This document shows positions 23,411 to 61,101 of a DNA stretch of 64,000 nucleotides, piece by piece. The notes below the pieces were generated by a model that did no database searches, was not told where the DNA came from, and saw nothing but the letters and a program-made list of their open reading frames with translations. Positions within the stretch are counted from its first letter, which is position 1. Each line of letters begins with the position of its first letter. The translations under genes were made by a program, and so were the position numbers. This DNA comes from Venturia oleaginea (taxonomy: Eukaryota > Ascomycota > Dothideomycetes > Venturiales > Venturiaceae). The stretch lies in assembly GCA_013176395.1 (NCBI GenBank), contig JABMLP010000003.1, forward strand, positions 248,001-312,000, given 5' to 3'.

Positions 23411-25259
23411 ACGTATTCGATCACCCAACCCGTCAGATCACCCAACCGGTCAAAATTTCTTGGCACGACCATCTTATATTACGACTCTTCAATTTCATCG
23501 CTATCAACAATAGATTCTGAGTCCGTCGTGCTGCTATCTAATTCAGAAGATATCTCGATATCTTTTCTACAAGTTCGCGCATTATGCCCAGTTGCGTCGC
23601 AGTTCCCACAGCGCCGTTGAGTTGGTCGTGCTGTTTCTTGGTCACCGATACCACGAGCCTTCTTCGATCCCTGAGGCGCTACAGACGCCTCTGCTGCTAC
23701 CTGCGCTGCTACAGTCCCATACTCCATAGTACCACCTTGCTGGATCCACTTCCTTTGGCGCAATTTTCGCTTCGTCATTACTGCCAATTGCTCGTCAAGC
23801 TCGCGGTTGCGCGCAACAAGTAGAGCGTTTTGGTGCAGCATCAATTCAGCGCCCTTAACAAGCTGGGAAAAGCCTGTCTGGGCAGTAATTGGTGACCGAG
23901 TAAAAGAGCCGCTTACGAGCTTGGATTGGGATCCAAATTCATGAGTATTGCTTGGAGTCTTTGACTGCCACGGCGTTTCTGGGAGACGGGGTTCTGGCGA
24001 GGTACGTAGCCGTACTTAAAGGCGATCCAACACCACCTGCGCGTCGATAGGGACTAGCCCTACTGCCTCAAAGGCCTTTTGACAGTTCTCTTTTGTAAAT
24101 ACGTCGAAAAACGCGTCTTTGAAGGCGGGGAGAAAGCCTTCCTTGTTGATATGGTAGACGCGTCGGCGTGCCAAGTCCCGGACGCGTTGGGAGTACTTGC
24201 GCTTAAACGGCGAGAAGCAGACCACGTCAAGGGGCTGGAGTATATGCGACGAGTGCGATGGCATGCAGAGGGTTATAATCTTATTTTCGAGGCAGTAGTC
24301 CTTGAAATCCTGGCTGAGATGGCTCTCATGGCCGTCCAAAATAAGCAGCCTATACACCCCCGCCTGCCGCGCCTTTGTATGCGCGCCAAAGTGCTTCAAC
24401 CACTCAAGACCAAGCGCGTTGTTTGTCCAGCCGTTCTCAGAGACTGAAAGCTTCCAATTGCGCGGTATATCTGCCTCCTCATACCACGTAGAGATGTGAA
24501 CTCGTCCTTTGTAGATAATGAATGGCGGGGTCACATACCCAGCTGCGCAGATGCTCTGAATAACCGTAACCCATTCGCGATCGCCCGGCTGAATGAGTGC
24601 AGACCTTGTACGTCTCTCAGAGGCTGTAACGACCTTCATTGACCCAATAACACCCATCTGGAAGCCAATCTCGTCAAAGTTGTGCGTATCCTCGTCGTGG
24701 ATGCCGTACTTTGCCTTGGTGTCTGCAACGAGCTTGAACCACGTGCCAATAATCTCTGGATCTTCCTGTAGTATCCTCTGCCTATCCTTTGCTCGATTGA
24801 AGGCTGTCTTGAGCTCATCTGAGCGCGTAACGAACCTCTCAGCCCACTTTTTGCCTACTGGCTCTCCACCGCGTATACCCAACAGTTTATCCGCCATATC
24901 TGCCACCTCACACAGCCGGGGCGCAAATCCTCGCGAATCGAGGTCGAGGATATATCGGAAAAGCGTTTTCTCTTCGGTAAGGGTAAGTTTCCGACCGTTT
25001 GGTGTTCTTTCGAGGATAAATGGGACTCCTCTGACGCGATCGGAGAGGGTTTGTTGTTTAACGTTGAAGGCGCTCGCAGCAGCCCGTTGGCTTTGGAGTT
25101 GGCCGATATTCAAAGCTTGGATTGCAAGCTGAATTCTCCCTTCGTTTTGGAGTAGTAACTCATTACGTTGTTGAGACATAGTAGAATAAGAAGAGTGGTT
25201 GGGGTCTTGGCAAATTTTGACCGGTTGGGTGATCTGACAGGTTGGGTGATCGAATACGT
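23411..25259 (-). mobile_element. Pogo/Fot-like DNA transposon, copy 1 (1849 bp)
   Basis: The ends are inverted repeats beginning ACGTATTCGATCACCCAACC, flanked by TA (23409-23410 and 25260-25261). Each end contains the motif GATCACCCAACCnGTCA twice in tandem. The element carries one transposase gene on the minus strand. Its length equals that of copy 2 (1849 bp). Confidence 0.93.
23479..25179 (-). pseudogene. Pogo-like transposase with C-terminal zinc knuckle, one premature stop (copy 1)
   Basis: One frame of 567 codons with a single in-frame TAA at 24016-24018, where the other copies read GAA. Layout: N-terminal helix-turn-helix (about 1-70, MSQQRNELLLQNEGRIQLA), a CENP-B-type HTH (about 70-140, GKKWAERFVTR), the DDE domain with THNFDEIGFQMG (first D), RLLILDGHESH (second D) and LQPLDVVCFSPFK (third acidic position), then a coiled coil and a CCHC knuckle CGNCDATGHNARTC. 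This is the Tc1/mariner pogo lineage (Fot1-like) that cuts and pastes at TA. Apart from the stop it is intact, so the copy has probably been inactive only briefly. The stop separates the DDE domain from the knuckle, so a truncated protein with a full DDE domain could still be made. Confidence 0.9.
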
Positions 25260-25261
25260 TA

Positions 25262-25761
25262 GGCCTTTTTAACAATTATATTTTAGCTCCGGTCCTAGAT
25301 TGATATCAACCACTTCAAAGGAATGGATACAAAAATACCAGGATGGATGAGGAGTCTATTTCTATTCCTATTTCTTTTTCGTATAAGAGGTGGAAGGGTC
25401 AATACACATCAGACTTGATCAGGTTCATCAGAGCTACGAACACAGGTAGTACCGGGAATGTCATGTCTAATGGGTGTTACTTGTCCATGATGCGGATCAT
25501 TGCTGCTCGACTCATTGCTTTTCCATCTGCTAGAAGCATCAGCCTCAAAATTGAGACTGGTCAAAGACTTTCTGTAACAGAGCCTTGAATGATATCTATC
25601 AAGAGTATATACAATACATAACCTTTGGGGTCCCTCTCCATCATTTCCTGTAAGACATGCGCCCCTTATTCGTCACCCGTATTGGCACATTGTAAGTACA
25701 TCGTTTCCCTTGCGATGAACCGCTCCAACGCGCCGTAACATGCAACATCACCTTGAGATCC
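25262..25761. other. Short intergenic stretch, 3' side of the P450 gene
   Basis: The 500 bp between transposon copy 1 and the P450 stop codon hold no recognised gene and should include the P450 3' untranslated region. Confidence 0.4.
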
Positions 25762-27525
25762 TCAAAATCCCAACTCGTCCGCTCTCCGCCTTCGCACCCT
25801 TATCTTCGCCTTCATCGGCGGGATAACATTTTGCCCAAACCAAACATTCGCCGGTCTAGTCTCAAGCGGCTCAATCTCATAAAACATCGTCGCATACGCA
25901 AGCAACATCTTCAATTCATGGGAAACCATGAAGCGGCCCGGACACGCATGCCGTCCGTGGCCGAACGGCAGGAATGTGCCTGAAGTGGTGCTCAGGCTCA
26001 TTTGCTTGCTCTCTAGCAACCCTGCCGTCTTAGGCTGCTCGCCATTCGAAGCTGTAGAAGCTGCCTCCTCTTGTTCTTGTGCGCGGGCGAATCGGAAGGG
26101 ATCGTAGGAGTCTGGATTCGGGTATATTCTAGGGTCGTGCATGACGCTGTGCACATCGAATCCGACAGTCGTGCCGAATGGCAATTTCCACCCAGCTCGC
26201 TTGTTTTCGATGCCCTCCTTTGCAACGACTTTCCGTTGTAGGCCTCTGGTGAGGAAATTTGACACACGCATGCTTTCTCGAATCGCAGAGTCGGCGTGAA
26301 CAAGTCGCCCCAGGGCTTGTTTCGACCACGAGCCTTCTGCAGCAATGTATTCAGCGCGTGCTTCCTGACGCACCACTTCAAGGGGTGAGATTAGAGATCC
26401 ATGTTCTTCCACTGATTTCTGTGATAATAGGTCGAATAGGCAATTCGTGATCGTGAAGACCGTGGTATGGATGGCGGCAAAATTGATCGGCATCAGTCTT
26501 CGTCCGATTCTATCTGGCTGAAGCTCCACTTGGTTGTTCTCCTTTTGTGCCACACGAATATGCCACGTTATGTAATCATTTGGCTCTTCCCACTCCCAGT
26601 CCGGGTTGGCGTCCTTTCTCGCAATATTGGCGAGGCGCTCGTGTATCAGAGGACCATGCAGAGCTCGAGCCTGTCGAAAATGACGATTATTAGGAATGGT
26701 AACCAGTCTGCCTAGGAGAGGCTCGAGTATTTTGGGAACGAATTGCAAAAGCATATTTGTCGTGATGACGTCTTGCGCAAAGGCACCCATCGACTTGAGA
26801 TAATCCTCGTTTCGACATAATGGCAGGCCAACGAAGACGCGGTTTGATACCCTTGCAATGACGTTCATCATGTTCTCAAAAACACAAATCTCTTTCCAGT
26901 TGTCCGTATCCATGCCCCAAGAGTCGTCGAGGGCACAACTTATTTCGTCATACAGGTCCGGTACCAAGGCCCCGATTCGTCTGGTAAGGCTCCGATGGAC
27001 AACATGTTCGTGGTAGGGATCTTTGAGAATTTGAGGATGAGTGAATGCGTAATCTCCTTTTAAGACTTCGTGATGCTGCTCTGATATTGAGAGAACATTG
27101 TCCGGCTATGTTTGATCAGTCCGGGTATCCATTATTTCCAAGACGGGATCATACCTGATCTAGCAGCCATCGCATTTCTGAGTTTGGAAGGAGAACTTCA
27201 GGAGTTCCTGAGAAATCCGGAAATACATAGGTTTTGCCATTTCGTGAAAACTGTAGAACTGTTATGAGTGGTGATTTCCGGTAAATGTATCAGGTCATAC
27301 CTTGTTATATCCTTCATGCAGCAATTGTCGCACGTTGTTGAAGCTCGACAGATGTGCCCTGGTTTCCGCAAACATCTTGCTCTCATCCTTGCCTACCCAT
27401 GGGAGATCCGAGGGCGGAGGAAGTCTTGCTGAAAGTCGGGAATATAAGATGGAAATGATAACGAACAGTAACGGCATCCAGACAAACGGACTCGAAAAGT
27501 ATTGCATGACAGCGTAAGAAGCCAT
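25762..27525 (-). CDS. Membrane-anchored cytochrome P450 monooxygenase
   Basis: Exons on the minus strand are 27525-27301, 27250-27155 and 27105-25762 (554 residues, all phase 0; introns 50 and 49 nt). An N-terminal hydrophobic anchor (about 8-27, FVWMPLLFVIISILYS) is followed by a PPPSDLPWVG hinge, so it should sit in the ER membrane. Motifs are an I-helix FAAIHTTVFTITN (oxygen-binding Thr), ExxR in RESMR, and the heme loop FLPFGHGRHACPGRF with the Cys ligand near residue 493. The AIHTT and FGHGRHACPG forms are common in fungal P450s of secondary metabolism (ent-kaurene-oxidase-like clades). The substrate cannot be told. No biosynthetic cluster is visible nearby: the gene is flanked on both sides by pogo-like transposons. 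Confidence 0.92.
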
Positions 27526-28428
27526 TTTGAATGGCGGAACCTTCTCCAATTGTTTTTCGAAATGGGAGGGAAAGGGACTATAGGTCGACCATGAGGGGAT
27601 CACCGTGACCAAGTAAGATGTCGCAGCGTGCAGTATGGGTGGAGGTGGGCTGTTAGCTGGTCGGGAGCAAGGACTTCCGGGGACGATCTCCCAATAATTC
27701 ACCGACAGAAGCAGCGACAGGGTGAGGATCGCTCTCAGGGTAGCTCTAGTACAGTACCACGTACTGTTAATACTACGTACAATGGCGGTTCATCAGGTTT
27801 AATACTTCGTGTTGCTGTCGAAGGTTCAGAGCAGCACTAGACCAAGCAAAGGAAGAAACATAGGTCTGTTATTGAAGGACACCACGAGTGGCTTGATACT
27901 CTTACTGTTACATGTTGAGGGCGCGTTCGCTGCAGTACTCGAACTTTGGAGCGACCAAAAATCAGGGATGGACCAGGCCATCGGGCTGCTCCTAGCAGAA
28001 TCTAGGAGTTATCCGCTTGCGATAAGGAGTTGGTACATGTGTATGTAGTATGTGCTAGGAGAATGACAGCACCCGGGCACTAAAGTTGCTGAAATAGTTC
28101 AAGGTTCGTGAATCGTGCCAGCCCTGTTAAACATCTCACTTTCCCACGTGATCCTATCGAGCGCCAAGCGCCATCATCAAGATGTGAGACGGGCTCCTGC
28201 AAGGTGCGCAAGGGGAGATGAACGTCTTTGTTTTAAGTGACAGCGTCTTGCCAAGCACATGCTCCACCAAACCCAAACCTAATTCCATCTCAGAAGGCAA
28301 TTTACGTCTTCAGGAATGCGACAGCAAACAACTTCAGCTTGGCAGGATGAGGGCGAACCTCGTCACTAAATATGGCTCAAAGCGTCATAGAGAAACGTTT
28401 GATATTGTACATGATGATCTTTGCTATA
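27526..28428. other. P450 upstream region
   Basis: The 900 bp between the P450 ATG and transposon copy 2 should contain the P450 promoter. No gene or repeat was recognised. Confidence 0.4.
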
Positions 28429-30277
28429 ACGTGTTCCACCACCGAGCTAGTCAACCCACCGAGCTGGTCAGTTTCTGCCAAGACGACCAACTCCCTCATT
28501 AACACGATATGTCTCAACAACAAAATGCGCAATTATCTAACAGAGAAGGCAGAATTCAGCTTGCCCTTTCTGCCTATAACACCCAACAATTCCGAAGCCT
28601 CCGGCGCGCTGCTGAAGCGTTTGATGTACCTCCTTCAACATTGACTAGCTGATACAACGGAATCACGTATCGCCTAGATACTCGCAACGCCCAACACAGG
28701 CTCACTACGACTGAAGAGCAGACAATTGTCCAATACATCCTCGACCTCGATTCGCGAGGATTCGCGCCCCGGCTGTGTGAAGTGGCAGATATGGCGGATA
28801 AACTGTTGGGTATACGCGGTGGAGAGCCAGTAGGCAAAAAGTGGGCTGAGAGGTTCGTTACGCGCTCAGATGAGCTCAAGACAGCCTTCAATCGAGCAAA
28901 GGATAGGCAGAGGATACTACAGGAAGATCCAGAGATTATTGGCACGTGGTTCAAGCTCGTTGCAGACACCAAGGCAAAGTACGGCATCCACGACGAGGAT
29001 ACGCACAACTTTGACGAGATTGGCTTCCAGATGGGTGTTATTGGGTCAATGAAGGTCGTTACAGCCTCTGAGAGACGTACAAGGCCTGCACTCATTCAGC
29101 CGGGCGATCGCGATGTGGGTTACAGTTATCCAGAGCATCTGCGCAGCTGGGTATGCGACCCCGCCATTCATTATCTACAAAGGACGCGTTCACATCTCTG
29201 CGTGGTATGAGGAGGCAGATATACCACGGATTTGGAAGCTCTCGGTCTCTGAGAACGGCTGGACAAACAACGCGCTTGGTCTTGAGTGGTTGAAGCACTT
29301 TGACGCGTATACAAAGGCGCGTCAAGTGGGGGGGTATAGGCTGCTCATCTTGGACGGCCATGAGAGCCATCTCAACCAGGATTTCAAGGACTACTGCCTC
29401 GAACATAAGATCCTACGCTCTGTATGCCACCTCATTCATCGCATATTCTCCAGCCGCTTGATGTGGTCTGCTTCTCGCCGTTGAAGTGCAAGTACTCTCA
29501 ACGAGTTCGAGACTTGGCACGCCGACGCGTCTACCATATCAACAAAGAAGGCTTCCTCCCGGCCTTCAAAGACGCGTTTTTCGACGTATTTACAGAAGAG
29601 AACTGTCGAAAGGCTTTTGAGATGGTAGGGCTAGTCCCTATCAACGCGGAGGTGGTATTGGATCGCCTTGAAGTACGGCTACGTACCCCACCAGCACCCC
29701 CACCGCAGGAGACGCCGTGGCAGTCGAAGACTCCAAGCAATACTCTTGAATTTGGATCCCAATCCAAGCTCGTAAGCGAGTCCTTTACTCGGTCACCAAT
29801 TACTGCCCAGGCAGGCTTTTCCCAGCTTGTCAAGGGCGCTGAATTGATGCTACACCAAAACGCTCTACTTGTTGCGCGCAACCGCGAGCTTGAAGAGCAA
29901 TTGGCAGTAATGACAAAGCGAAAATCGCGCAAAAGGAAGTGGATCCAGCAAGGTGGTACTATAGAGTATGGGACTGTAGCAGCGCAGGTAGCTGCCGAGG
30001 CGTCTGTAGCGCCTCAGGGATCAAAGAAGGCTCGTGGTAGTGGTGGTCAAGAAATAGCCCGACCAACTCAACGGCGCTGTAGGAACTGCGGCGCAACTGG
30101 GCATAATGCGCGAACTTGTAGAAAAGATATCGAGATATCATCTGAATCAGATAGCAGCACGACGGACTTAGAATCTATTGTTAATAGCGATTAAATTGAA
30201 GAGTTGTAACATGAGTTGGTCGTGCCAAGCCTTTTTGACCAGCTCGGTGGGTTGACCAGCTCGGTGGTGGAACACGT
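28429..30277 (+). mobile_element. Pogo/Fot-like DNA transposon, copy 2 (1849 bp)
   Basis: The ends begin ACGTGTTCCACCACCGAGCT, flanked by TA (28427-28428 and 30278-30279). Each end holds a doubled motif of the form CCACCGAGCTGGTCA. The right end lies about 100 bp from the stop codon of the uL22m gene. Confidence 0.93.
28510..30194 (+). pseudogene. Pogo-like transposase, multiply broken (copy 2)
   Basis: The ATG is at 28510 (MSQQQNAQLSNREGRIQLAL). A TGA near codon 48, a frameshift near 29112 (between QPGDR and WVTVIQS) and another near 29410 (after CLEHKI) break the frame. From about 28735 to 29095 it is, by eye, nearly identical to copy 1, whereas the preceding N-terminal region is strongly diverged. 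It keeps the CENP-B-type HTH, the DDE motifs and the CCHC knuckle CRNCGATGHNARTC. The second frameshift is shared with copy 4. Confidence 0.88.
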
Positions 30278-30378
30278 TATCTAGTTGCACAATCTCAAGA
30301 GCCACTCTCACGGTGACCAGATGGTATGCGAGCCTGACCATCAACCAAGAAGATGAATTGGAACTAATCGGTTTCCCA

Positions 30379-31473
30379 TCACCATAGCGGATATTGTCGC
30401 TGTGCAGTGACTGGTCGGTCTGGTAGGTGAAGCCAAAGTTTTCGATTCTCAAACTTCTTTTTCTTTTCTTCGAATAAACGCACTCGGGTAGCCTCTTCTT
30501 TCAGTAGCACGGTGACACCTAGCGAGCACAGTTAGCTAAATGTGAAAGGGGAGACAGCTAGACTTATCTGGTGCTTACTCGTGAAGGGATTTTGCATCAA
30601 GTTGGCTTGTCCTCTTGCCCGATAGTCAGTCTCAAATCCATGGGGACCTCTGCCAACCCACGCTTGGTCGATATAAATGCCCGTACGGTCCATGATTTTC
30701 TCCCTCTTCCCATCCTTCAGCTCGATCTCAACGGGCTTCCCTTCTCTGCCTTCGACTTTGCCTAGTCCCATTCCCCTGTTTACAATAGCCATGTCCCTTG
30801 AATACTCGAGATGTTTCTTGAGGTCCTGGGCCACTCTTTTCTTGCTGAACCGCATTTGTACGATTGCCTCCTCGATGGGCTTTCCAGCGATCTGTCGAGC
30901 AAGCATGCCTAGCTTCTTTGTAGACGTCTTAAGCCATTGACTCTTTGTCAAACTTTCACGCTCGGTGCGCTTTAACCATTCTTTCTTGGTCAAGCGACCC
31001 CGTCTCTTGACCTGCTTCACAACCACTTTCCGTTCCCATTTCACGCGCGACTTCGGGTCTGGGTCCAGTATGGTTCCCATGTAGCCGCTATTTCTGCCTT
31101 GAAATGGAGATCTATCGGTCTGCTGATCTTTCCGTGGCATGTGTTCATCTTCGTCTTCAAAGTCGGCTTCGTCATGTTCGCCATCCTCGAAAATGGAGTC
31201 TTCCGAGATATTTCCACGCTGGGGCACGACCTGTGCTTCCTTCTTTGGTTTCTTCTTGAGGAAATCGTCGACACTTTTGTTTTCAGTGCTGCTGAGGTCC
31301 TTTTTGTTGGATGCGGCTCGGGCGAATACTCGGAAAGGAGATGGAGTTTGGCGACAAGATGGACAGGTACGGAGGGCAGCAAGGGCTACAAGTAGGGATT
31401 AGACCATTTATTCCATCATTAGATTGAACATACCAGGCTCTAAGAGCCGCCTCTGCGGTATTCGTAATGCCAT
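30379..31473 (-). CDS. MRPL22: Mitochondrial large-subunit ribosomal protein uL22m
   Basis: Exons on the minus strand are 31473-31434, 31385-30579 and 30518-30379 (328 residues; introns 48 and 60 nt). The ribosomal L22 domain lies in the second half: GKPIEEAIVQMRFSKKRVAQ, YSRDMAIVNRGMG and IYIDQAWVGRGPHG. It ends with ATRVRLFEEKKKK and PDRPVTAQRQYPLW, typical of fungal uL22m. The start ATG 31473 gives MALRIPQRRLLEPALAALRT, a good mitochondrial presequence. A longer frame reaching 31564 is out of phase with exon 2, so I rejected that start. An acidic fungal N-terminal extension follows the presequence. The gene is boxed in by pogo copy 2 on its 3' side and copy 5 on its 5' side, the latter 122 bp before the ATG. 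Confidence 0.9.
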
Positions 31474-31596
31474 TTGCTATGGCGGTGGGATACTTCCGCC
31501 GATGGCGATGCGGCAGTCTTGACTGGAGAAATGTCGAGGGCTGAGAGCCTATTTTGTAAGGCATCACTAGATTCAAGCGCCACAGCTTCTTTGGTA

Positions 31597-33265
31597 ACGT
31601 GTTTCACCACTCAGTGGGCCACCCCCAGTCAGTGGGCCACCCCATCAAAAAGTCCATTCTCTTCGTACAATAACTGCGATAATGTTAACACCAACGCCTG
31701 AATCAGCCCACAAAGAGGCTAGATTACATCTTGCGAAGCAAAGCTTTCAAAAGAATCAAAATTCAAGTCAACGTCAAATCTCAGCGTTGTACGATATATC
31801 TCGAGCTACACTTCAGCGTCGTCTCAAAGGCATCAAACTGTTGAAAGTATTGATTGAAGCTTGCTACGGAGGTGGCCGGAAGGTCCCTATATATAAGCGC
31901 CCAGCGCTATTTCCCAAATGGGACACAAATAAACAAGGAGAATAGCCACTTCCTCCATGTCACGGCGAGCATTGAACCAGACAGAATGAACTAAGATTCC
32001 ATTTACTCAGTGTGATGAGAGAATATCAGATAGAGAGTAAGTAACTACGGGGCGCGCGAGTTGATGTTCCTCTCGCCACAGTGTGGCTGCGAAACGTTGT
32101 CATGTGACAAAGATGGCCACCATGCCATGCCGTCACACTCCAACAGAATGGACAACAGCGATCGAGGGAATCAACGCGTCAGGCTGGGCGATACCGCCAT
32201 TCATTATCCTTCCTGGAAAAGTGCATCAATCAAACTGGTATCATCAGTTACCGGCTGTTCGGGTTATTGCTATAAGCAATAATGGCTGGACAACTAATGA
32301 GCTTGGATTTGAGTGGATCAAGCACTTCAATACTCATACAGAAGCTCGTACAAAGGGTACTCACCGTCTCCTTATCCTCGATGGCCACAACAGTCACGCA
32401 ACACCAGAGTTTGACGGATATTGTTGTACAAACAACATTATTACACTCTGTATGCCGCCACACACATCACATCTTCTTCAGCCACTTATTGTAAGTTGTT
32501 TTTCGCCTCTGAAACGCTCGTACGGCCAAGCAGTTCAAGAGCTTGTTCGTCAAGGAACCCACCATATCGACAAAGAGGACTTTCTATCGATCTATACAAG
32601 CACCCGACCAACTGTCTTCTCTGAGCAGAATATCAAGAGCGGTTTTCAAGCGACAGGACTTGTTCCATACAACCCGCAGCGTGTTCCTTCGTCGCTTACA
32701 GTCACCAAAACGCCATCACCACCAGGAACACCCCATAGAGGAGCACCATAGTGGACGTCAGAAACTCCTCGTACAATAGCTCAGCTTCAACAGCAGGCTC
32801 AGCTCGTCCGAGACCTTCTTCATCGCCAATCTCAGAGCCCAAGCAGTCAAGCAATCAGTCAACTTATCAAAGGATGTCAAGTCGCAATGAATTCAGCAGT
32901 GATACTTGCAGAAGATAATAAGAAGCTTCGTGTAGAGAACCAACGACGAAAACAGAAGCAATACTATCGTAGACAATATATTGCACATGGAGGCGTTTTA
33001 CAGGCTCAACAGGGTCAGTTCTTAGTTCAGGGAGGCAAAAATAACTCTGGAGAGAGTGTTCAAGATCAGGAAGTCGTCGTACAACAGCGAGCATTACCAA
33101 CGTGCAGTGGCTGCGGTATTCAAGGTCATAAGATCAATCGATGTCCAAATACCTAGAGAATGTATTATTAGAGTTATTTTGATAATGATCATAGTGGTGG
33201 TAGATTTATTGGACGATAACATAAAATTTAGTGGTGAGGGTGGCCCACTGAGTGGTGAAACACGT
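31597..33265 (+). mobile_element. Pogo-like DNA transposon, second subfamily, copy 5 (1669 bp)
   Basis: The ends begin ACGTGTTTCACCACTCAGTG, flanked by TA (31595-31596 and 33266-33267). The left end holds a doubled CAGTGGGCCACCCC-like motif. It is related to copy 6 and more distantly to copies 1-4. It is inserted in the upstream region of uL22m. Confidence 0.9.
31682..33156 (+). pseudogene. Pogo-like transposase, internally rearranged (copy 5)
   Basis: The ATG at 31682 (MLTPTPESAHKEARLHLAKQ) starts an N-terminal HTH like that of copy 6. The CENP-B-type part and the first catalytic region (about 31.86-32.1 kb) are scrambled or lost. The later DDE part is present from about 32130: ASGWAIPPFIILPGK, HRLLILDGHNSH and LLQPLIVSCFSPLK (I in place of D at the third acidic position). 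A TAG near 32749 reads CAG in copy 6. The C-terminus has the CCHC knuckle CSGCGIQGHKINRC. It cannot encode an active transposase. Confidence 0.85.
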
Positions 33266-39288: not shown

Positions 39289-39303
39289 GCGCTCGCAATC
39301 GAG

Positions 39304-40087
39304 ATTGATTGATTGATTGATTTTATCCTACTCGGTTGCAGCCGCTTAATCACGCAGCTATGTCCGGTTAGGAGGACTTCATCAGACAGCCGACACGTGA
39401 TAGATTATATAATCCACCGCGCCCCACTTCGCCCCGTTCACTGAAACAAGACCAGCTGTCCCCTCCGTCCTCCCTCTTTTCCCTTAACCAGTATCTCCAA
39501 ATGCCCGCTGGCTCTTGTAGATACTGGTTATTCTGCTAGTATATCTGTGCTATGTAGACTCAAGAGGCAATGCCTCGTGTTTCGCTAACCTTTTACCTAC
39601 AGTCTCCCTCTAATGCTCAGCTTTGTCTATCTGTTTCGCCTTATCCCTCAAGGCCAATGGGTTCCCTAAGTATGTTTCTGCTTGTGAAAGTTGCCTTGCA
39701 CCAGATTCCTATGCGGCGGTGTATTTGGTTGTGTGATGCTGGAGACAATAGTAACCATCGTAGTCGTGATTTCGCTGCTTGGGTGTGATACTCCGGGTAT
39801 GCCCGTGGACGAGGCTGTCTGGTAGCTGCCGTATTGTATGGCGCCGATCGTGCTATAGACCTGCCGTCTTATAGTCGGAGCCTACCTGCTGCTAGTCGCT
39901 CTTCCTACTTGCTATATCGCGCTCCTACTCTTGCCAATGCCATAACTGGGACGCAACAGTCTGGGGAGAGGCTCAAGGCTACGTCTGCTGGCTTGTAGGG
40001 AGGGGATTTGCCGCCAATAAGCTCCTTCTATACGTCCTTACTGCTTACTGTGTTGCGCACCTACTCTTGCCAATGCCATAACTGGGA
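39304..40087 (-). mobile_element. 5'-truncated LINE-derived copy with 15-bp target-site duplication
   Basis: The (ATTG)n end at 39304 is the 3' tail seen in reverse; the body runs to 40087. GCGCTCGCAATCGAG flanks both sides (39289-39303 and 40088-40102). It contains the shared 3' region and two of the GGCATTGGCAAGAG-type tandem blocks. There is no coding capacity in the sense direction. Confidence 0.9.
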
Positions 40088-40237
40088 GCGCTCGCAATCG
40101 AGCGCATCGAGCGCGCTCGCTTTGCCAAGGCTCGAGCGTTCACATGATCCTTCCGATCCCGTGTAATAACTTACTAATCACAAAGGAAACGCGCCATACG
40201 TGTCACTAAACGTTCCACGTGACAGTATCCGTAACAG

Positions 40238-48395: not shown

Positions 48396-50217
48396 ACATA
48401 CTCCACCACCCAACCGCTCAAAATTTCTTGGCACGACCATCTCATGTTACGACTCTTTAATTTTTTCGCTATCAACAATAGATTCTAAGTCCGTCGTGCT
48501 ACTATCTGATTCAGAAGATATCTCGATATCTTTTCTACAAGTTCGCGCATTATGCCCAGTTACGCCGCAGTTCCCACAGCGCCGTTGAGTTGGTCGGGCT
48601 GTTTCTTGATCACCGATACCACGAGCCTTCTTCGATTCCTGAGGCGCTACAGACGCCTCTGCAGCTACCTGCGCTGCTGCAGTCCCATACTCCATAGTAC
48701 CACCTTGCTGAATCCGCTTCCTTTTGCGCGATTTTCGCTTCGTTATTACTGCCAATTGCTCTTCAAGCTCGCGGTTGCGCGCAACAAGTAGAGCGTTTTG
48801 GTGAAGCATCAATTCAGCGTCCTTAACAAGCTGGGAAAAGCCAGCCTGCGCAGTAACTGGTGACCGAGTAAAAGAGTCGCTTACGAGCTTGGATTGGGAT
48901 CCAAATTCATGAGTATTGCTTGGAGTCTTTGCCTGCCACGGCGTTTCTGGGAGACGGGGTTCTGGCGAGGTACGTAGCCGTACTTCAAGGCGGTCCAATA
49001 CCGCCTGCGCGTCGATAGGGACTAGCCCTACTGCCTCAAAGGCCTTTTGACAGTTCTCTTTTGTAAACACGTCGAAAAACGCGTCTTTGAAGGCAGGGAG
49101 AAAGCCTTCCTTGTTGATATGGTACACGCGTCGGCGCACCAAGTCCCGGATGCGTTGGGAGTACTTGCGCTTCAACGGCGAGAAGCAGACCACGTCAAGG
49201 GGCTGGAGTATATATGACGAGTGCGATGGCATGCAGAGGGTCAGAATCTTATTTTCGAGGCAGTAGTCCTTAAAATTCTGGTTGAGATGGCTCTCATGGC
49301 CGTCCAAAATGAGTAGCCTGTACCCCCCCCCCCCACCTGCCGCACCTTTGTATGCGCGTCAAAATGCTTCAACCACTCAAGACCAAGCGCGTTATTTGTC
49401 CAGCCGTTCTCAGAGACTGAAAGCTTTCAATTGCGCGGTATATCTGCTTCCTCGTACCACGCAGAGATATGAACGCGTCCTTTGTAGATAATGAAGGGTG
49501 GGGTTGCATACCCAGCGACGCAGATACTCTGAACAACCGTAACCCATTCGCGATCGCCCGGCTGAATGAGTTCCGACCTTGTACGTCTCTCGGAGGCTGT
49601 AACGACCTTCATTGACTCAATAACACCCATCTGGAAGCCAATCTCGTCAAAGTTGTGTGTATCCTCGTCGTGGACGCCGTACTTGGCTTTGGTATCTGCA
49701 ACGAGCTTGAACCACGCGCCAATAATCTCTGGATCTTCCTGTAGTATCCTCTGCCTATCCTTGGCTCGGTCGAAGGCCATCTTGAGCTCATCTGAGCGCG
49801 TAACGAACCTCTCAGCCCAGTTTTTGCCCACTGGCTCTCCGCCGCGTATAGCTAGCAGTTTATCGGCCATATCTGCTACCTCACACAGCCGGGGCGCAAA
49901 TCCTCGCGAATCGAGGTCAAGAATGTATCGAACAAGCGTTTAATCTTCGCGGTAAGGGTAAGTTTCCGACCATTTGGTGGTGTTTCGAGGATAAATGGGA
50001 CTCCTTTAACGCGCTCAGAGAGGATTCGCTGTTTAACGCCAAAGGCACGAGCGGCGGCCCGTTGGCTTCGGAATTGGCCGGCTTGGAGGGCTTGGAGTGC
50101 GAGCTGGATTCTCCCTTCGTGTTGGAGTAATAGTGCGTTTCGTTGTTCAGACATAATCACATAAGAGGAATGATAGAAGTCTTGGCAGATTTTGAGCGGT
50201 TGGGTGGTGGAACACGT
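48396..50217 (-). mobile_element. Pogo/Fot-like DNA transposon, copy 3 (1822 bp)
   Basis: The ends are ACATACTCCACCACCCAACC on the left and the reverse complement of ACGTGTTCCACCACCCAACC on the right, flanked by TA (48394-48395 and 50218-50219). The inner motif (CACCCAACCGCTCAAAATTT) is close to that of copy 1 but present once per end. It is inserted between UTP15 and the ABM gene, close to the UTP15 promoter. Confidence 0.92.
48447..50154 (-). pseudogene. Pogo-like transposase with frameshifts (copy 3)
   Basis: The ATG is at 50154 (MSEQRNALLLQHEGRIQLAL, close to copy 1). Frameshifts occur near 49.94 kb (after LTLT, where insertion changes the EEKTLFRYIL block) and near 49.32-49.44 kb, where a run of 13 C lies at about 49323-49335 in place of the CACCCCCG of copy 1. 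The remaining 286-codon frame (49307-48447) is open and ends in the CCHC knuckle CGNCGVTGHNARTC. The catalytic D in DEIGFQMG and the DGHESH block remain recognisable. Confidence 0.88.
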
Positions 50218-54220: not shown

Positions 54221-55105
54221 GAGTCCTGTGCTTCAGATGTTTGCAGAATTGTATGGAGTAGGGCGTAAAATGCATGGTATTGATCTGGAAGACGAGATCG
54301 TAATGGATAGAATGTCGTTACCGGGGGAGGTAGGTGTCTTTATTTTGGGGCCGGGATCTAGGTCTGGAGTTTGGAAAGTCGGGGTATGGTTTTGATATCC
54401 CAGATGGCAGTTTATTATAGGTACGCGCATTATCAAAACGCGCTAGAACGAGAGTACAATTGTACGTTAGAAATCTCTACGCGGAACATTCAGTATACGT
54501 TCTTGGGGTCTTCCAGATCTCAATCTGATATGTTGCTGCGTCCGACAGCGATGTTGGGAAATACCAACAGATGACGAAATTTGTACTCGTTGTGCAGCGG
54601 TTGATGCTCGGCCAGGTTCATCAAAACGCCCTGTTCTTCGGACACCACCTACGCGGTACGCGGTGTTTCTCGGATCACGGCGGCGAAGGATGGTCGGGTT
54701 CTATCAGCATCCAGCGAATATCGGTAGCCGGGCCACACGGTAGAACCTGACCCTGCCTGTCGCGGCCGTCGCTCCAGGCAGGGTCCGCCACCTTAATGCA
54801 AAGGGTCGGCTCAATGCAAAGATTTTAAATATTTCAACTTCATCAATTAATTACACCACCACCATAGCTCCTAATTAATCCAAGATTTACAGAGATCAAT
54901 AAAAGGATATAGATGATGCTCTAGTAGAGTTATCTTGTCACGGGGCGCGTTCGGGTATCAGGAAGGAGCAGCAGCAGGAACAGGTATCATTTAACAGGCT
55001 ATACTATGGTAAACGGACAAATAAACGTTAGTTAGTGGGACTGATCTGCACTTAATATTGGCCGGAGATCCCACATTCTTGGTGTAATAATACATGATTA
55101 TAAAG
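54221..55105. other. Gene-free stretch with a GC-rich hairpin
   Basis: No gene was found. A perfect 11-bp inverted repeat, GACCCTGCCTG ... CAGGCAGGGTC (54749-54759 and 54775-54785), sits in a local GC-rich patch, followed by AT-rich DNA. A segment near 55.0 kb (GGACAAATAAACGTTAGT) resembles the reverse complement of one near 59.31 kb, so part of this is repeat sequence. Confidence 0.4.
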
Positions 55106-56954
55106 TGTTGAACAGTGGCATGCCAGTCCTTGATACCTCAGGCATAGTGCACGTGATAGATGCCAAGGAATGCATTGACATGCATATATATGCATGCAGA
55201 TGCAACGGAAACAGCACACACAGCGAGAACTCAATTTTTGGAATTTACAGAAGTATCATCTAAGGATCATCAAAACACCTCTGCCAGTGGCCGCTCCGGC
55301 CTCTAGAGGCCATCGCGCGTCCCTCAGCGTCGATGAGATATCTCTAGAGTCGCCGTCGCGGCCACGGCAGAGCAAGCAGACGAATACATGAGCAAGCTAC
55401 ACGAACGATGCGTCCACCAAAGACAACAGCAACCATCTAGTCACTATCTCCCGGCTAGTCCATCACCCCAGATGACACTGCAACGCTCCGAGTCGACGAG
55501 TCACTGCTAGAACGGCAATACCTTCAACACAACTCAAACACCAGACGCCCGGTGCGCAACAATCGGCACCACACACCACTGCAACGACTAGACAACCTCT
55601 CCCAACGTCTTGGCAAACCGTCCTGCTACAAGCTGTTGCCCAGAGCCTTGAGCCTCTCCCCAAACTGTTGCCTCCCAGTTATGGCATTGGCAAGAGTAGG
55701 TGCGCGACAGAGTAAGTAGTAAGGACGCATAGAAGGAGCCTATTGGCGGCAAATCCCCTCCCTGTAAGCTAGCAGACGTAGCCTTGAGCCTCTCCCCAGA
55801 CTGTTGCGTCCCAGTTATGGCATTGGCAAGAGTAGGTGCGCGATATAGCAAGCAGGGAGAGCGACTAGCAGCAGATAGGCTCCGACTATAAGACGACAGG
55901 TCTACAACACAATCGGTGCGACACGATACGGCAGCTGCTAGAGAACCTCATCTACTATCGTCTCCGCAAACCGTCCTGCTGCAAGCTGATGTCCAGAGCC
56001 TTGAGCCTCTCCCCAAACTGTTGCGTCCCAGTTATGGCATTGGCAAGAGTAGGTGCGCAACACAGTAAGCAGTAAGGACGTATAGAAGGAGCTTATTGGC
56101 GGCAAATCCCCTCCCTACAAGCCAGCAGACGTAGCCTTGAGCCTCTCCCCAGACTGTTGCGTCCCAGTTATGGCATTGGCAAGAGTAGGAGCGCGATATA
56201 GCAAGTAGGGAGAGCGACTAGCAGCAGATAGGCTCCGACTATAAGACGGCAGGTCTATAGCACGATCGGCGCCATACAATACGGCAGCTACCAGACAGCC
56301 TCGTCCACGGGCATACCCGGAGTATCACACCCAAGCAGCGAAATCACGACTACGATGGTTACTATTGTCTCCAGCATCACACAACCAAATACACCGCCGC
56401 ATAGGAATCTGGTGCAAGGCAACTTTCACAAGCAGAAACATACTTAGGGAACCCATTGGCCTTGAGGGATAAGGCGAAACAGATAGACAAAGCTGAGCAT
56501 TAGAGGGAGACTGTAGGTAGAAGGATAGCGAAACACGAGGCATTGCCTCTTGAGTCTACATAGCACAGATATACTAGCAGAATAACCAGTATCTACAAGA
56601 GCCAGCGGGCATTTGGAGATACTGGTTAAGGGAAAAGAGGGAGGACGGAGGGGACAGCTGGTCTTGTTTCAGTGAACGGGGCGAAGTGGGGCGCGGTGGA
56701 TTATATAATCTATCACGTGTCGGCTGTCTGATGAAGTCCTCCTAACCGGACATAGCTGCGTGATTAAGCGGCTGCAACCGAGTAGGATAAAATCAATCAA
56801 TCAATCAATCAATGCAGATGCAACGGTGTACTTAACCTCTGCAGTCAATACAGTCAAGTCACAGGGTGACACTCGTTCTGTTCATCGGCTCCTATCGTTA
56901 AGTTCGTGCTGAATCTACTTCCGAATAACTCTGTTTTGCTCGTTCAGCGTAACA
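55106..56954. mobile_element. Solo LTR with a LINE nested inside (composite B)
   Basis: It has the same LTR as at 20754: start TGTTGAACAGTGGCATGCC, end CGTTCAGCGTAACA, here flanked by the 5-bp duplication TAAAG (55101-55105 and 56955-56959). The LTR is interrupted by a 1.6-kb LINE-derived insert at the same internal position as in composite A. Confidence 0.88.
55209..56812 (-). mobile_element. LINE-derived insert in LTR B
   Basis: The (CAAT)n tail ends at 56812. The target duplication TGCAGATGCAACGG lies at 55195-55208 and 56813-56826. From 55.62 kb on it matches 21.6-22.9 kb, including the four tandem GTTATGGCATTGGCAAGAG blocks (spacing about 136, 216 and 136 bp). The left 400 bp are not seen elsewhere in the window. 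No reverse transcriptase is present. Confidence 0.85.
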
Positions 56955-56986
56955 TAAAGCTGTTTTTGAGCTCAATTTCAACGCTA

Positions 56987-58034
56987 TCACCATTTCGTAT
57001 ACATAGTCTCTATCAAACTCCACAGTTTCTGCGGAGTTATAGCATTCTCCCAGGCTTCCTGTACAATCCTTCTCAATTCTGGATGGTTATAATACCTATC
57101 CTTATAGTTTGCCTCTATCCAATCCTTCATCCAATTCCATACTGTCTCAATTGGGTTCATATCTGGTGAGAAAGGTGGCCAAAAGATGAGAGGGACCCGG
57201 AGGCGTAGGAGCTCTGCTTTCGTAAGAGAACCTGAGTGCCCTGGGGCGTTATCCTGCATCAAAAAGAGCCTATTCTGTCGTGTATATTCAGCCATTGTAG
57301 GCACGATTCTCTCCGTGTATGACTCCTAAATTGGTAAGAAAAGGAGGCTTAAGAGAGGGAGAATCTACCGACCATATTGATAGCACCCCAGTTCTTCTCC
57401 CAGAAAAGAGATGGCCCTTTTTGAGCCCCGTAGAATGAACCCCAGAACATCCACCCTTTCTTCCTTTGAACCTTCTGAACTACACAGTCAGGGTGGAGTT
57501 CTTCGCCGGCTTTGCGGGTAACCCATTGCTTCTTATGCCTCCCTCCTGTTACCCAGGTCTCATCAGTCCACAGTATAGTAGCCCATTGTTGTAAGGTCCA
57601 GTGTTGGTGCTCTAGGGCCCAGGCAAGGCGGAGGCGTCGATTCTTATCGGAGAGGGTGGTTTTTGCCTTGCAACATAGCGCTTGTAACCTCTTTTAGCGA
57701 GTGCTTTTCGGAGGCAATCTGCTCCTACACCAAGGTGGGCAAGAGGGCTAATTGAGAGTGCTTGCCAGCTTAATAGTCGAGCTGCTTTTGAGCTACATAT
57801 GTAGGCTTCAAGCTCATCAATCTGCTCCTCTGTAAGGTATCCTTTTCGGCCCGCACGTCGCTTCTTTTGAGGCGTAGGGTGACCTGCATTGACGGCCAAC
57901 TGACACTGCCGTATAGTAACACAGGTGCCGTGTTTCTCCTGGAAAAACTGCGAAATTGCGTGGTTGGTTAAGCCTGCTTGGTGTAGGTTAAGGATAATAA
58001 GGCGTTGATCTCGTGTGAGCTCTTGAGACCTCAT
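56987..58034 (-). pseudogene. Tc1-like transposase with intron and one frameshift
   Basis: The ATG at 58034 (MRSQELTRDQRLIILNLHQA) begins an N-terminal HTH, with a second HTH-like part (GRKGYLTEEQIDELEAYI). A one-base loss near 57651-57665 (after RQKPP) shifts the frame; the next frame continues through WTDETW (first D). A 47-nt GT..AG intron (57326-57372) can be spliced out, then LFLMQDNAPGH (second D) and SPDMNPIETVWNWMK (third acidic residue, E) follow to the stop at 56987. The whole DDE triad is therefore present and the single frameshift is the only visible lesion. Family: Tc1/mariner superfamily, distinct from the pogo copies. Element ends could not be defined; the left side abuts the LTR target site and the right side abuts pogo copy 6. 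Confidence 0.82.
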
Positions 58035-58127
58035 GATGGCTGCAGTTATAACACCAAAATCTTGTGTATACAGAATGTCAACGTGGCTGTGGAAGGAGAT
58101 TACATAAACACCAAAAATACGAGATTA

Positions 58128-59252
58128 ACGTGTTTCACTACTCACTTGGCCACCCCACTCACTTGGCCACCCCAACCACTCAATCTCAAGTCATCGTGCG
58201 ATAAACCTCCCACCAATACAGCTTTTATTAAAATAATTCTAATAATGCATTCTTTACGTATTTGGGCATCGATTAATCTTATGACCTTGAATACCGCAGC
58301 CACTACATGTTGGTAATGCTCGCTGTTGTACGACGACTTCCTGATCTTGAACACTATCTCTAGAGCTATTTTCGCATCCCTCGACCAAGAACTGACCCTG
58401 TTGAGCTTGTAAAACGCCTCCATATGCAATATATCGTCTACGATACTGTTGCTTCTGTTTTCGTCGTTGGTTCTCTGTACGAAGCTTCCTATTCTCTTCT
58501 GCAAGTATTACTGCTGAATTCATTGCGACTTGACATCCTTTGATGAGTTGACCAATTGCTTGACTGCTTGGGCTCTGAGATTGGCGACGAAGAAGATTTC
58601 GGACGAGCTGAGCCTACTGCTCAAGCTGAGCTATCGTACGAGGAGTTTCTGACGTCCACTGTGGCGCTACTCCATGGGGTGTACCTGGTGGTGAGGGCGT
58701 CTCTTCAACACGCTGAAACCACGCGTTGATTGTCGCTGGATCTTCGCATTTTGCACGCTGTGAATGGAATTTACGATTCCACTTCGTATAAAGCTCCGGC
58801 TGAGCGTTGATGAAGCGGAATACCCAGTTCTTCCCGACTAATAACGGTGGAGGATTCGTACCGCGTTTTTCGAGTAAAGCGTTAGCCATTCGTCGTACGT
58901 CGATAATTTGGGGCGGAAATCCTCGTCGATCAAGGTCTAGGATCCACTGAACCAGAGCCTGCTCTTCATGTATTTGTAACTTTCTCTTTTGGTGGTTAGA
59001 TTCGCTTCGTGGTTTACCACCTTGAAGACGAGACTGAAGTGTAGATCGAGGAATATCGTACGACGCTGAGATTTGACGTTGACTTAAATTTGGATTCGTT
59101 TGAAAGCTCTGCTTCGCAAGAAGTAATCTAGCCTCTTCGCAAGCCGATCCGGGGGTTGGTGTTGACATTATCGCGATAATTGTACGAAGGGATTAGACTT
59201 TTTGGTTGGGTGGCCAAGTGAGTGAGGTGGCCAAGTGAATGGTGAAACACGT
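58128..59252 (-). mobile_element. Pogo-like DNA transposon, second subfamily, internally deleted (copy 6, 1125 bp)
   Basis: The ends begin ACGTGTTTCACTACTCACTTGG on the left and match inverted on the right, flanked by TA (58126-58127 and 59253-59254). Each end has a doubled motif of the form CACTTGGCCACCCC, one base set different from copy 5 (CAGTGGGCCACCCC). Confidence 0.9.
58254..59168 (-). pseudogene. DDE-less pogo-like transposase: DNA-binding part joined to zinc knuckle (copy 6)
   Basis: From ATG 59168 (MSTPTPGSACEEARLLLAKQ) the frame holds the N-terminal HTH (SQRQISASYDIPRSTLQSRL) and the CENP-B-type HTH (VGKNWVFRFINAQPELY). It then jumps in frame from NAWFQRVEE to TPSPPGTPHG, skipping the entire catalytic domain found in copy 5. 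One TAG (58614-58616; CAG in copy 5) precedes the C-terminal part, which includes the coiled coil and the CCHC knuckle CSGCGIQGHKINRC. The frame is otherwise unbroken over 305 codons. A protein made from it could bind ends but not cut them. Confidence 0.85.
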
Positions 59253-59254
59253 TA

Positions 59255-59739
59255 CGGCTTGTATACAGCTTAACATGATTGCGGCGTCACCTCGGTAAAT
59301 CGCCATACTAACGTTTATTTGGCCGGCAACCATAGTAGACGAACTGGCAGGCAAACCGACAGGCAGGTTTAACGACAGGATGTAGCTCAAAGAGCTACGA
59401 ATTGGTTGAAGCCACGTAGGCTTTAAAACCTTTCCTCGGCAGAACCCCGGTTCTGCCTTGATCACGTGCCGTAGGGCCACCCCAACGGCGGGAAGGACTT
59501 GTCAGCGGTCGTACCGTGACATATCTCGAGATTCCACCTTTACCGTCGCGTTAATTACCCTTCTCTACTCTTCCTTATTAGTTATGGCTGTAGCCTTTCT
59601 AAGACAAGATACGTAATATAACGTGGAATCTAGTCTAGAATAAGCTTAAAACTATATTTAAGAGAGCCTCCTAGACTCCTAGTTTAGTATATTAAGACAA
59701 TAGATATGCTAGGGCTAAGAGTAACGCTAAAATCAATTA
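59255..59739. other. Gene-free stretch between pogo copies 6 and 4
   Basis: No gene was seen. Part of it (near 59.31 kb, reverse strand) resembles sequence near 55.0 kb, so it is probably old repeat. Confidence 0.35.
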
Positions 59740-61101
59740 ACGTATTCCACCACCGAGCCGGCCACTTTTCCTTGGCACGACCAACTCATATTACGCCTCT
59801 TCAATTTTATCGCTATCAACAATAGATTCCAAGTCTGTCGTGCTGCTATCTGATTCAGAAGATATCTCAATATCCTTTTTACACCTTCGCGCATCGTGCC
59901 CAGTCGCGCCGCAGTTCCCACAGCGCCGTAAAGCTGGCCGGGCTGTTTCTTGATCACCACTACCACAAGCCTTCTTTGATTTCTGAGGCGCTACAGACGC
60001 CTCTGCAGCTACCTGCGCTGCTGCAGTCCCATACTCCATAGTACCACCTTGCTGGATCCGCTTCCTTTTGCGCGATTTTCGCTTCGTCATTACTGCCAAT
60101 TGCTCTTCAAGCTCGTGGTTTCGTGCAATAAGTAGAGCGTTCTGGTGTAGCATCAATTCAGCGCCCTTGACAAGCTGAGAGAAGCCAGTCTGCACACTAA
60201 CTGGTGACCGAGTGAAAGATTCGCGTACAAGCTTTGATTGAGATCCAAATTCAAGAGTATTGCTTGGAGTCTTCGACTGCCACGGCGTCTCCTGCGGTGG
60301 GGGTGCTGGTGGAGTACGTAGCCGTACTTCAAGGCGATCCAATACCACCTCCGCGTTAATAGGGACTAGCCCTACCATCTCAAAAGCCTTTCGACAGTTC
60401 TCTTCTGTAAATACGTCGAAAAACGCGTCTTTGAAGGCCGGGAGGAAGCCTTCTTTGTTGATATGGTAGACGCGTCGGCGTGCCAAGTCTCGAACTCGTT
60501 GAGAGTACTTGCACTTCAACGGCGAGAAGCAGACCACATCAAGCGGCTGGAGGATATGCGATGAATGAGGTGGCATACAGAGCGTAGGATCTTATGTTCG
60601 AGGCAGTAGTCCTTGAAATCCTGGTTGAGATGGCTCGATTGAAGGCCATCTTGAGCTCATCTGAGCGCGTAACGAACCTCTCAGCCCACTTTTTCCCTAC
60701 TGGCTCTCCACCGCGTACACCCAGCAGTTTATCCGCCATATCTGCCACCTCACACAGCCGGGGCGCAAATCCTCGCAAACCGAGGTCGAGGATATATTGG
60801 ACAAGCGTTTGCTCTTCTGTTGCAGTGAGCTTATGGGAGTTTGGGCGAGTTTGAGATGGAGAGGTAATTCCGCAGAGCCGATCAGAGAGCCTTTGGTGTT
60901 TGATGTTGAAGGCTGCAGCAGCGCGCCTTAGGCTTTGAAATTGGCCAGAGGTATAGGCCTGAAGAGCGAGATCAATTCTGCCTTCTTCTTGAACGGCTAT
61001 CGCGTTGCGTTGTTGAGACATTGCGTGTTGAAGAGGATAAGGGCTGTGCCAAGGAAAAGTGGCCGACTCGGTGGTGTGGCCGGCTCGGTGGTGGAATACG
61101 T
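59740..61101 (-). mobile_element. Pogo/Fot-like DNA transposon, copy 4 (1362 bp, internally deleted)
   Basis: The ends begin ACGTATTCCACCACCGAGCC; TA is on the left (59738-59739), while the right flank reads TT, so one duplication base has changed. The right end has a doubled CCACCGAGCCGGCCA-like motif. Confidence 0.88.
59791..61021 (-). pseudogene. Pogo-like transposase with core deletion (copy 4)
   Basis: The ATG is at 61021 (MSQQRNAIAVQEEGRIDLAL; then RRAAAAFNIKHQRLSDRL, an HTH). After AFNRA the sequence jumps to the region after the DGHESH block, with GAGC microhomology at the junction, removing the first two catalytic aspartates. The second half (60576-59791, 261 codons) is open and nearly identical to copy 2. 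It carries the same one-base loss after CLEHKI and ends in the CCHC knuckle CGNCGATGHDARRC. Confidence 0.87.

What the first reader, a model, noticed from the sequence alone, without database searches (positions are those of the whole stretch)
23411..61101. Pogo-like transposons with matched, swappable recognition modules (ends plus transposase N-terminus)
Six copies share the outermost bases but differ in the motif just inside: copy 1 CACCCAACCGGTCA, copy 3 CACCCAACCGCTCA, copy 2 CACCGAGCTGGTCA, copy 4 CACCGAGCCGGCCA, copy 5 CAGTGGGCCACCCC, copy 6 CACTTGGCCACCCC. Transposase N-termini sort the same way: copies 1 and 3 share a SQRAAA..F.VKQ helix, copies 2 and 4 a SLRRAA..F helix, copies 5 and 6 a SQRQISA.YDI helix. 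In every copy the two ends match each other. The pattern suggests coevolving, exchangeable specificity around a common catalytic core.
Basis: partly seen in the sequence, partly recalled or inferred. Interest (0 to 1): 0.85.

Follow-up and report, generated by a model that had tools for sequence, protein, structure and literature searches.

The report
Jumping genes with interchangeable recognition cassettes
In a fungal genome, closely related jumping genes share one cutting enzyme but carry different matched pairs of DNA-reading head and end tags, and the shared part is traded between copies while the matched pairs are mostly kept, which lets one ask how such elements change what they recognise.

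Summary
Six pogo/Fot1-like elements (ACGT ends) lie in the window, each with two ends of one type. Copies 1-4 share one core (A) but differ in the first ~67 codons (HTH1) and in a 14-bp end motif, part of a 17-bp tandem site. Copies 5-6 are another family (core B) and show no conflict.

Among 117 elements on contigs C1-C13 that I could link, N-terminal type equals right-end type in 112 (full-length: 62 of 65). Between non-sister types, silent divergence is 0.37-0.66 in the N-terminus but 0.13-0.30 in the core (medians). N-terminal and core trees reject each other, also without hybrids. Core tracts have moved between types inside elements whose ends still match. Among 57 proteins, this genome's cores form one exclusive clade while its N-termini are scattered.

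So recognition cassettes persist as old matched types while the core beneath is overwritten. Matching is favoured, not absolute: one mismatched hybrid occupies two sites. A possible recognition code (residue 47 with base 9) is a lead only.

The parts
23411..25259 (-). Copy 1: element with N-terminus N1 and T1 ends (two 17-bp sites at each end)
24979..25179 (-). Copy 1 N-terminal module (67 codons, HTH1)
24019..24978 (-). Copy 1 core A (second HTH and DDE_1)
28429..30277 (+). Copy 2: N2b N-terminus, T2b ends; one stop in the N-terminus; about +200 to +600 from the ATG the core is N1-like
28509..28709 (+). Copy 2 N-terminal module (N2b)
48396..50217 (-). Copy 3: N3 N-terminus (76% aa to N1), T3 ends, one site per end; frame broken in the core
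59740..61101 (-). Copy 4: N4 N-terminus, T4 ends (one site at the 3' end, two at the 5' end); internal deletion
31597..33265 (+). Copy 5: N5 N-terminus with core B (separate family), T5 ends; shorter than its relative L070
58128..59252 (-). Copy 6: N6 N-terminus of the core B family, T6 ends; 1.1 kb deletion derivative
23422..23452 (+). Copy 1 3' end: two 14-mers 17 bp apart (23422, one mismatch; 23439, exact)
25218..25248 (-). Copy 1 5' end: two 14-mers 17 bp apart (25218, exact; 25235, one mismatch)

Best explanation
These are Fot1/pogo-type cut-and-paste transposons whose recognition is carried by a matched cassette: HTH1 (codons 1 to ~67) plus the 17-bp sites at both ends. Five main cassette types (N1, N3, N2a, N2b, N4; a sixth, N3x, read once) sit on one core family (second HTH plus DDE nuclease). 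SHOWN by sequence: between non-sister types the N-terminus is far older in silent sites than the core; stretches of core have moved between types; in matched elements these stretches begin after the diverged N-terminus and end before the right-end motif; N-terminal type and right end agree in nearly all linked elements; one-sided exchanges exist as mismatched hybrids, each met once among the elements read or typed, except one met twice; similar N-terminal types occur in foreign proteins while the cores of this genome form a clade of their own. INFERRED: (1) the exchange is ectopic gene conversion or repair between copies and stops where identity falls to ~50%; (2) HTH1 reads the variable part of the site, and HTH2, which travels with the core, reads conserved parts; (3) an element spreads well only if its transposase reads both of its own ends, so matched cassettes are kept and mismatched hybrids mostly do not multiply; (4) distinct cassettes let closely related elements coexist without mobilising each other.
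For: N-type equals right-end type in 112 of 117 linked elements, 62 of 65 at full length (187 typed right ends, 70 without a listed N-terminus in reach). Sharp change at codon ~68: N1 against N2a 45-63% DNA before, 83-100% after. Silent divergence medians, N against core: N1-N2a 0.658 / 0.207, N1-N4 0.617 / 0.263, N2b-N4 0.485 / 0.130; inside N2b 0.000 / 0.166 (52 of 68 elements kept). AU tests: core rejects N tree p 2.7e-40, N rejects core tree p 5.8e-15; without hybrids and doubtful copies, core rejects N2a+N2b as sisters p 1.2e-6 and N rejects N2b+N4 p 7.7e-4 (37 elements). Core tracts: N2a turns N1-like after about +800 and N2b turns N4-like between about +470 and +800 (each p <= 5e-6, the floor of the permutation test; triplets chosen from 120 tested); N2b is mostly back to N2 lineage from +1238, N2a mostly from ~+1514; copy 2 has an N1-like stretch at about +200 to +600 (not tested for significance). 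Cross-species: 7 own sequences (6 types) form one exclusive clade in the core tree but are spread over a clade of 52 of 57 in the midpoint-rooted N tree; own N4 groups with foreign P0005, bootstrap 99. Diagonal controls: families C and D 61-64% N / 70% core DNA; L070 and L071 84.6 / 89.6%. The DNA-binding model (pLDDT 86) has two HTHs with the break at their border.
Against: The 117 elements are not independent: N2a and N4 are recent bursts, and 52 of the 117 are deletion derivatives, so the agreement partly reflects common descent. L023 and L024 are 1853 bp, identical, with unrelated flanks and one foreign end (N2a with a T3 right end), so a mismatched element moved at least once, or was moved in trans. 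The sister types N2a and N2b have slightly LESS silent divergence in the N-terminus (0.156) than in the core (0.184), and pairs with N3x among N1/N3 are near equal (0.24-0.30 / 0.17-0.24). Tract analysis uses one sequence per type; borders are approximate and patchy. No binding or transposition was measured.
Confidence: 0.75

Rival explanations
1. Rapid adaptive evolution of HTH1 and ends in place, without recombination between types.
For: The N-terminus is the more variable part also across species (N identity median 48-54% in core-identity classes from 70 to 95%).
Against: Silent sites are also 1.9-3.7 times more diverged in the N-terminus than in the core in the non-sister pairs; a sharp border; conflicting trees; visible tracts.
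Confidence: 0.04
2. True module transfer: N-terminus and both ends of one type were moved onto another core.
For: For old types the resulting trees are the same as for core overwriting. L083 has an N1 N-terminus with N4-like linker letters, mostly N4-like DNA from ~+450 to ~+1100 and a T4 right end.
Against: It needs coordinated exchange at both ends. The tracts traced in matched elements lie inside the core and leave both ends in their own lineage.
Confidence: 0.15
3. The agreement of N-type and right end is only descent: few crossovers and recent bursts, no selection for matching.
For: Strong bursts (39 N2a-T2a and 43 N4-T4 pairs); mismatched L023/L024 moved.
Against: Interior exchange is found in several types, and six hybrid lineages are seen (L023=L024, L026, L082-L085), yet none was met more than twice among the elements read or typed. 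Their copy numbers in the whole genome were not counted.
Confidence: 0.3
4. Each type arrived separately (horizontal transfer) with its own core, and the cores were later homogenised in this genome.
For: Similar N-types occur in foreign proteins (P0005 82% to N4, P0016 78% to N2a) while the own cores form one clade.
Against: No core A-type copy with an undoubted foreign core was met in the loci read; conversion between very diverged cores would be inefficient.
Confidence: 0.35

Closest known systems
Fot1-like / pogo elements of ascomycetes, e.g. DAHLIAE1a-e of Verticillium dahliae (PMC3441728: passages and section 9 read)
   Same: 1.86 kb, TA target, ACGT- ends, 41-62 bp TIRs with 15-17 bp internal direct repeats, HTH_psq + HTH_Tnp_Tc5 + DDE_1, several subfamilies in one genome
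   Different: There the subfamilies are 73-74% identical overall and were classed by whole-element trees; no separate tree of N-terminus and core and no matched exchange in what I read
Galileo of Drosophila mojavensis (PMC3573991: passages read)
   Same: Copies of one transposon exchange sequence; chimeric copies with TIRs of two subfamilies, and copies with TIRs of one subfamily around the inside of another
   Different: P-element superfamily, long TIRs, mostly non-autonomous copies; no link to the transposase recognition domain in what I read
mariner lineages that coexist because transposases do not bind each other's ends (Lampe et al. 2001, seen only as cited in passages of PMC4161770)
   Same: Loss of cross-recognition as a way for related elements to share a genome
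   Different: Divergence of whole lineages, not matched cassettes on one shared core
CENP-B DNA-binding domain, PDB 1hlv
   Same: Two tandem HTHs; first Foldseek hit of the model; reads a 17-bp box (box length recalled)

Membership tests
pogo / Fot1 transposons | DDE_1 catalytic domain | tested here: met
   PF03184 E 1.3e-28 to 2.3e-25, above cut-off in 5 of 5 core A sequences scanned
pogo / Fot1 transposons | TA target site and terminal inverted repeats | tested here: met
   TA|ACGT at both ends in copies 1, 2, 5 and 6, at one end in copies 3 and 4
pogo / Fot1 transposons | N-terminal HTH_psq plus HTH_Tnp_Tc5 | tested here: inconclusive
   psq above cut-off in 2 of 5 (L017 N2a, L077 N2b); Tc5 found at residues 68-123 but below cut-off in 5 of 5
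pogo / Fot1 transposons | ACGT ends with 15-17 bp direct repeats, as in DAHLIAE1 and 2 | tested here: met
   compared with PMC3441728
pogo / Fot1 transposons | Catalytic aspartates D169, D282, D318 (35 residues between the last two; that these are the triad and that Fot1 is DD35D is recalled) | tested here: met
   the three D columns are invariant in the 39-row alignment
CENP-B-type two-HTH DNA-binding domain | Fold of the two HTH domains | tested here: inconclusive
   core A family only, not core B
   no end tree built; right-end type equals N type in 112 of 117
   needs binding assays

The most novel reading that the evidence does not exclude
The cassettes behave like recognition alleles kept by selection across species: a small set of old HTH1/end pairs on a common, constantly homogenised nuclease, each pair escaping cross-mobilisation by the others' deletion derivatives. 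HTH1 follows a readable code in which residue 47 (just before the conserved R48, in the predicted recognition helix 42-49) sets base 9 of the 14-mer: Arg with G (6 of 6 types), Asp or Glu with C (4 of 4), Ser with T (2 of 3; family D has Ser with G), Tyr and His with G (one each). Two separate sister pairs, N2a/N2b and N5/N6, both change Arg to Ser together with G to T.
Probability: 0.3. Interest if true: 0.85.

Novelty: new variant of a known kind. Interest (0 to 1): 0.72.

Why it matters
How a transposase and its two ends change specificity together is an open problem, because a change in one part alone should stop transposition. Here one genome offers hundreds of copies with five main matched types on one core, interior exchanges that keep the match, natural mismatched hybrids, and sister types (N2a, N2b) that differ in two helix-region residues and two motif bases. 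That makes coevolution of protein and site, coexistence of related elements, and the recognition rule of HTH_psq domains directly testable.

Tried and rejected
Chance: reversed control patterns gave 0 matches.

Fast evolution in place: rejected by silent sites.

First divergence table and trees: the core was cut without gaps, so elements with indels (L048, L053, L054) looked falsely divergent. Replaced; the claim that N1 sits on far diverged cores is withdrawn (N1-N1 core median fell from 0.139 to 0.063; a maximum of 0.323 remains in pairs that I did not trace one by one, L041 having the longest core branch). In one search the low values of L003, L004, L007 and L008 come from the same ungapped cut and are not used.

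Cross-species '76% coverage' hits (P0054 and similar) looked like core-only matches but are gene models that start late (part of that output was cut); not counted.

Residue-base scan (repeated because one letter of family C was mistyped): 336 pairs, 15 types. Pair 47/9 has p 0.0015 but ranks only 7th, behind pairs that follow family structure, and 41/9 ranks above it, so the code is a lead, not a result.

Full-length structure model: poor (pLDDT 57.7), best matches integrase-like at E 0.46 or worse; the solved-structure sequence search gave no transposase.

Prior art: ten searches of open-licence papers listed no paper whose title or abstract start describes matched exchange of recognition domain and both ends. 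I read passages of PMC7325037, PMC4188875, PMC3573991, PMC4112212 and PMC4161770, passages and section 9 of PMC3441728, and abstract plus outline of PMC6696609; everything else was seen as listings only.

Not done: a tree of the ends, a full census (only the best 125-150 places per search and the first 100 pattern matches are listed), genome-wide copy numbers of the hybrids, identification of the organism (relatives named are Pyrenophora, Parastagonospora and Paraphaeosphaeria).
Full report
What is there. The window lies in an unnamed 46 Mb genome, taken to be fungal from its relatives. The motif is part of a 17-bp unit. Core A copies that I read have one to three units per end, probably four in L037, and one element of another family has five (L101). 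The protein has HTH1 (psq-like), HTH2 (Tc5-like) and a DDE_1 domain. The model of residues 1-125 is good (pLDDT 86) and shows helices 2-25, 31-37 and 42-49, then 67-82, 89-102 and 112-119. The sequence break near codon 68 falls at the border between the two HTHs.

Two families, not one. Copies 1-4 carry core A. Copies 5 and 6 carry core B: 51% aa identical to A in copy 5, 44% over a 95-residue remnant in copy 6. Within B, L070 (N5) and L071 (N6) are 84.6% identical in the N-terminus and 89.6% in the core; copy 5 against L071 gives 76.6% and 77.3%: an ordinary parallel divergence.

Numbers. A search with core A of copy 1 gave 1627 first-look candidates; the 125 scored were all at least 90% identical in protein. 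On such cores sit several N-terminal types: N1 (copy 1), N3 (copy 3, 76% to N1), N2b (copy 2) and its sister N2a, N4 (copy 4), and N3x, read once (L081).

N-terminus and far end agree. For 117 an N-terminus was found; 70 had none listed. Type agreed in 112 of 117: N1/T1 15, N3/T3 6, N2a/T2a 39, N2b/T2b 9, N4/T4 43. The five others were N1/T3, N1/T4, N2a/T4, N2b/T1 and N2b/T2a, one each. Of the 117, 65 are of full length (over 1.6 kb), 62 of them matched; the rest are deletion derivatives. These counts are not independent, because several types are recent bursts.

The core is younger than the cassette. N1 and N2a are 45-63% identical in DNA up to codon ~68 and 83-100% after it. With gapped alignments of 52 elements (16 of 68 dropped as incomplete), median silent divergence in N-terminus and core was: N1-N2a 0.658 and 0.207; N1-N2b 0.624 and 0.229; N1-N4 0.617 and 0.263; N1-N3 0.374 and 0.201; N2a-N4 0.534 and 0.232; N2b-N4 0.485 and 0.130; within N2b 0.000 and 0.166. 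Sister types do not show the gap: N2a-N2b 0.156 and 0.184, N1-N3x 0.241 and 0.166, N3-N3x 0.300 and 0.239. Selection on protein alone cannot make silent sites differ 1.9-3.7 fold inside one gene. Control families C and D lie on the diagonal: N-terminus 61-64%, core 70%.

Trees. With all 48 distinct elements the core data reject the N-terminal tree (AU p 2.7e-40) and the reverse (5.8e-15). After removing hybrids, copy 2 and the doubtful L010, L041 and L044 (37 elements left), the core still rejects N2a and N2b as sisters (p 1.2e-6), and the N-terminus rejects N2b and N4 as sisters (p 7.7e-4).

Where the exchange happened. In N2a (L017) the core follows N2b to about +800 (nt from ATG) and then N1; in N2b (L077) it follows N2a and then, from a border between about +470 and +800, N4 (each p <= 5e-6, the floor of the permutation test; these triplets were chosen from 120 tested with fewer permutations). 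Downstream, N2b is mostly back to the N2 lineage from +1238 and N2a mostly from +1514, before the right end, with patches. Window copy 2 has a further stretch: N1-like at about +200 to +600 inside an N2b element (97% to copy 1 over 404 bp); its significance was not tested. This is why copies 1 and 2 look so alike in the window. All three lie inside the core, with N-terminus and both ends still matched.

Mismatched hybrids. Sliding best match shows L026 (N2b to N2a from ~+515), L082 (N1 to N3 from ~+1240), L083 (N1 to mostly N4 from ~+450, with later N1-like patches, T4 end), L084 (N2a to N2b/N4 from ~+575), L085 (N2b to N1/N3 from ~+455) and L023 (N2a to N3 from ~+1475). L082-L085 were fetched because they were mismatched. 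L023 and L024 are identical over 1853 bp with unrelated flanks, so this hybrid moved with one foreign end. That is the main evidence against a strict rule.

Across species. From 2765 homologous proteins the best 120 were listed; 50 had a complete ungapped N-terminus and core and were compared with the types of this genome. In the core tree 7 own sequences (6 types; a second N1, L048, was left out) form a clade of their own; in the midpoint-rooted N-terminal tree they are spread over a clade of 52 of 57, and N4 pairs with foreign P0005 (bootstrap 99). AU tests reject in both directions (1.5e-88 and 1.7e-80). Most foreign sources are unnamed; named ones include Parastagonospora nodorum (P0004) and Paraphaeosphaeria minitans (P0034).

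How it most likely works. Inferred: the transposase binds each end through HTH1 on the variable bases and HTH2 on conserved ones. Copies in one nucleus exchange core DNA by conversion or break repair; exchange dies out where the N-terminus and ends differ too much. Because a working element must read both its own ends, interior exchanges survive and one-sided ones mostly do not multiply. The result is old matched cassettes on a core that keeps being made uniform within the genome.

A possible code. Across 15 types, residue 47 (before the conserved R48, in the predicted recognition helix) goes with base 9 of the 14-mer, counted from the element end: Arg-G 6 of 6, Asp/Glu-C 4 of 4, Ser-T 2 of 3, Tyr-G and His-G one each. 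The sister pairs N2a/N2b (differences in the helix region only at residues 40 and 47, and in the motif only at bases 3 and 9) and N5/N6 both show Arg to Ser with G to T. The pair ranks 7th of 336 (p 0.0015, not corrected for relatedness), so this is a hypothesis. For families C and F helix and motif were read from different copies of the same family, and for N3x from the inner site, its outer left site reading differently.

Known or new. The element type is known: ACGT ends, direct repeats in the TIRs and the same domains are described for Verticillium (PMC3441728), and ACGT ends with these domains for Sclerotinia (PMC4188875). Sequence exchange among copies, including copies with ends of one subfamily around another's inside, is described for Galileo (PMC3573991). 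I found no report that joins this to the recognition domain (ten searches, open-licence papers only). I rate it a new variant of a known kind.

Noticed in passing
G000:C12:1773894, 1788187, 1802480, 1816765: Four N4 hits spaced about 14.3 kb apart, each with a T4 right end at the same distance: it looks like a tandemly repeated 14.3 kb segment.
   Followed up: no
L101, about 62-146: A family H element with five tandem copies of the 17-bp end site at one end; core A copies read have one to three, probably four in L037.
   Followed up: no
contigs C1-C13: Recurrent deletion derivatives of one length: N1-T1 at 577 nt (7 of 15), N2a-T2a at 1314-1316 nt (8 of 39), N4-T4 at 993 nt (4 of 43, the C12 copies).
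   Followed up: no
window 19637-23250, 39303-40088, 55103-56954: Another repeat family: direct and inverted copies of 0.3-0.8 kb at up to 99% identity, with a GATT repeat at one edge of two copies.
   Followed up: no
window 663-4586: Gene for an RNA-dependent RNA polymerase (PF05183, E 1.5e-184), a likely RNA silencing component, in the same window.
   Followed up: no
L028, right end: An element end that holds a broken second end a few bases outside it, as if one element end had been inserted beside or into another.
   Followed up: no
L081: A type N3x, N-terminus 75-76% to N1 and N3, with its own end motif CACCCAACCCGCCA.
   Followed up: partly
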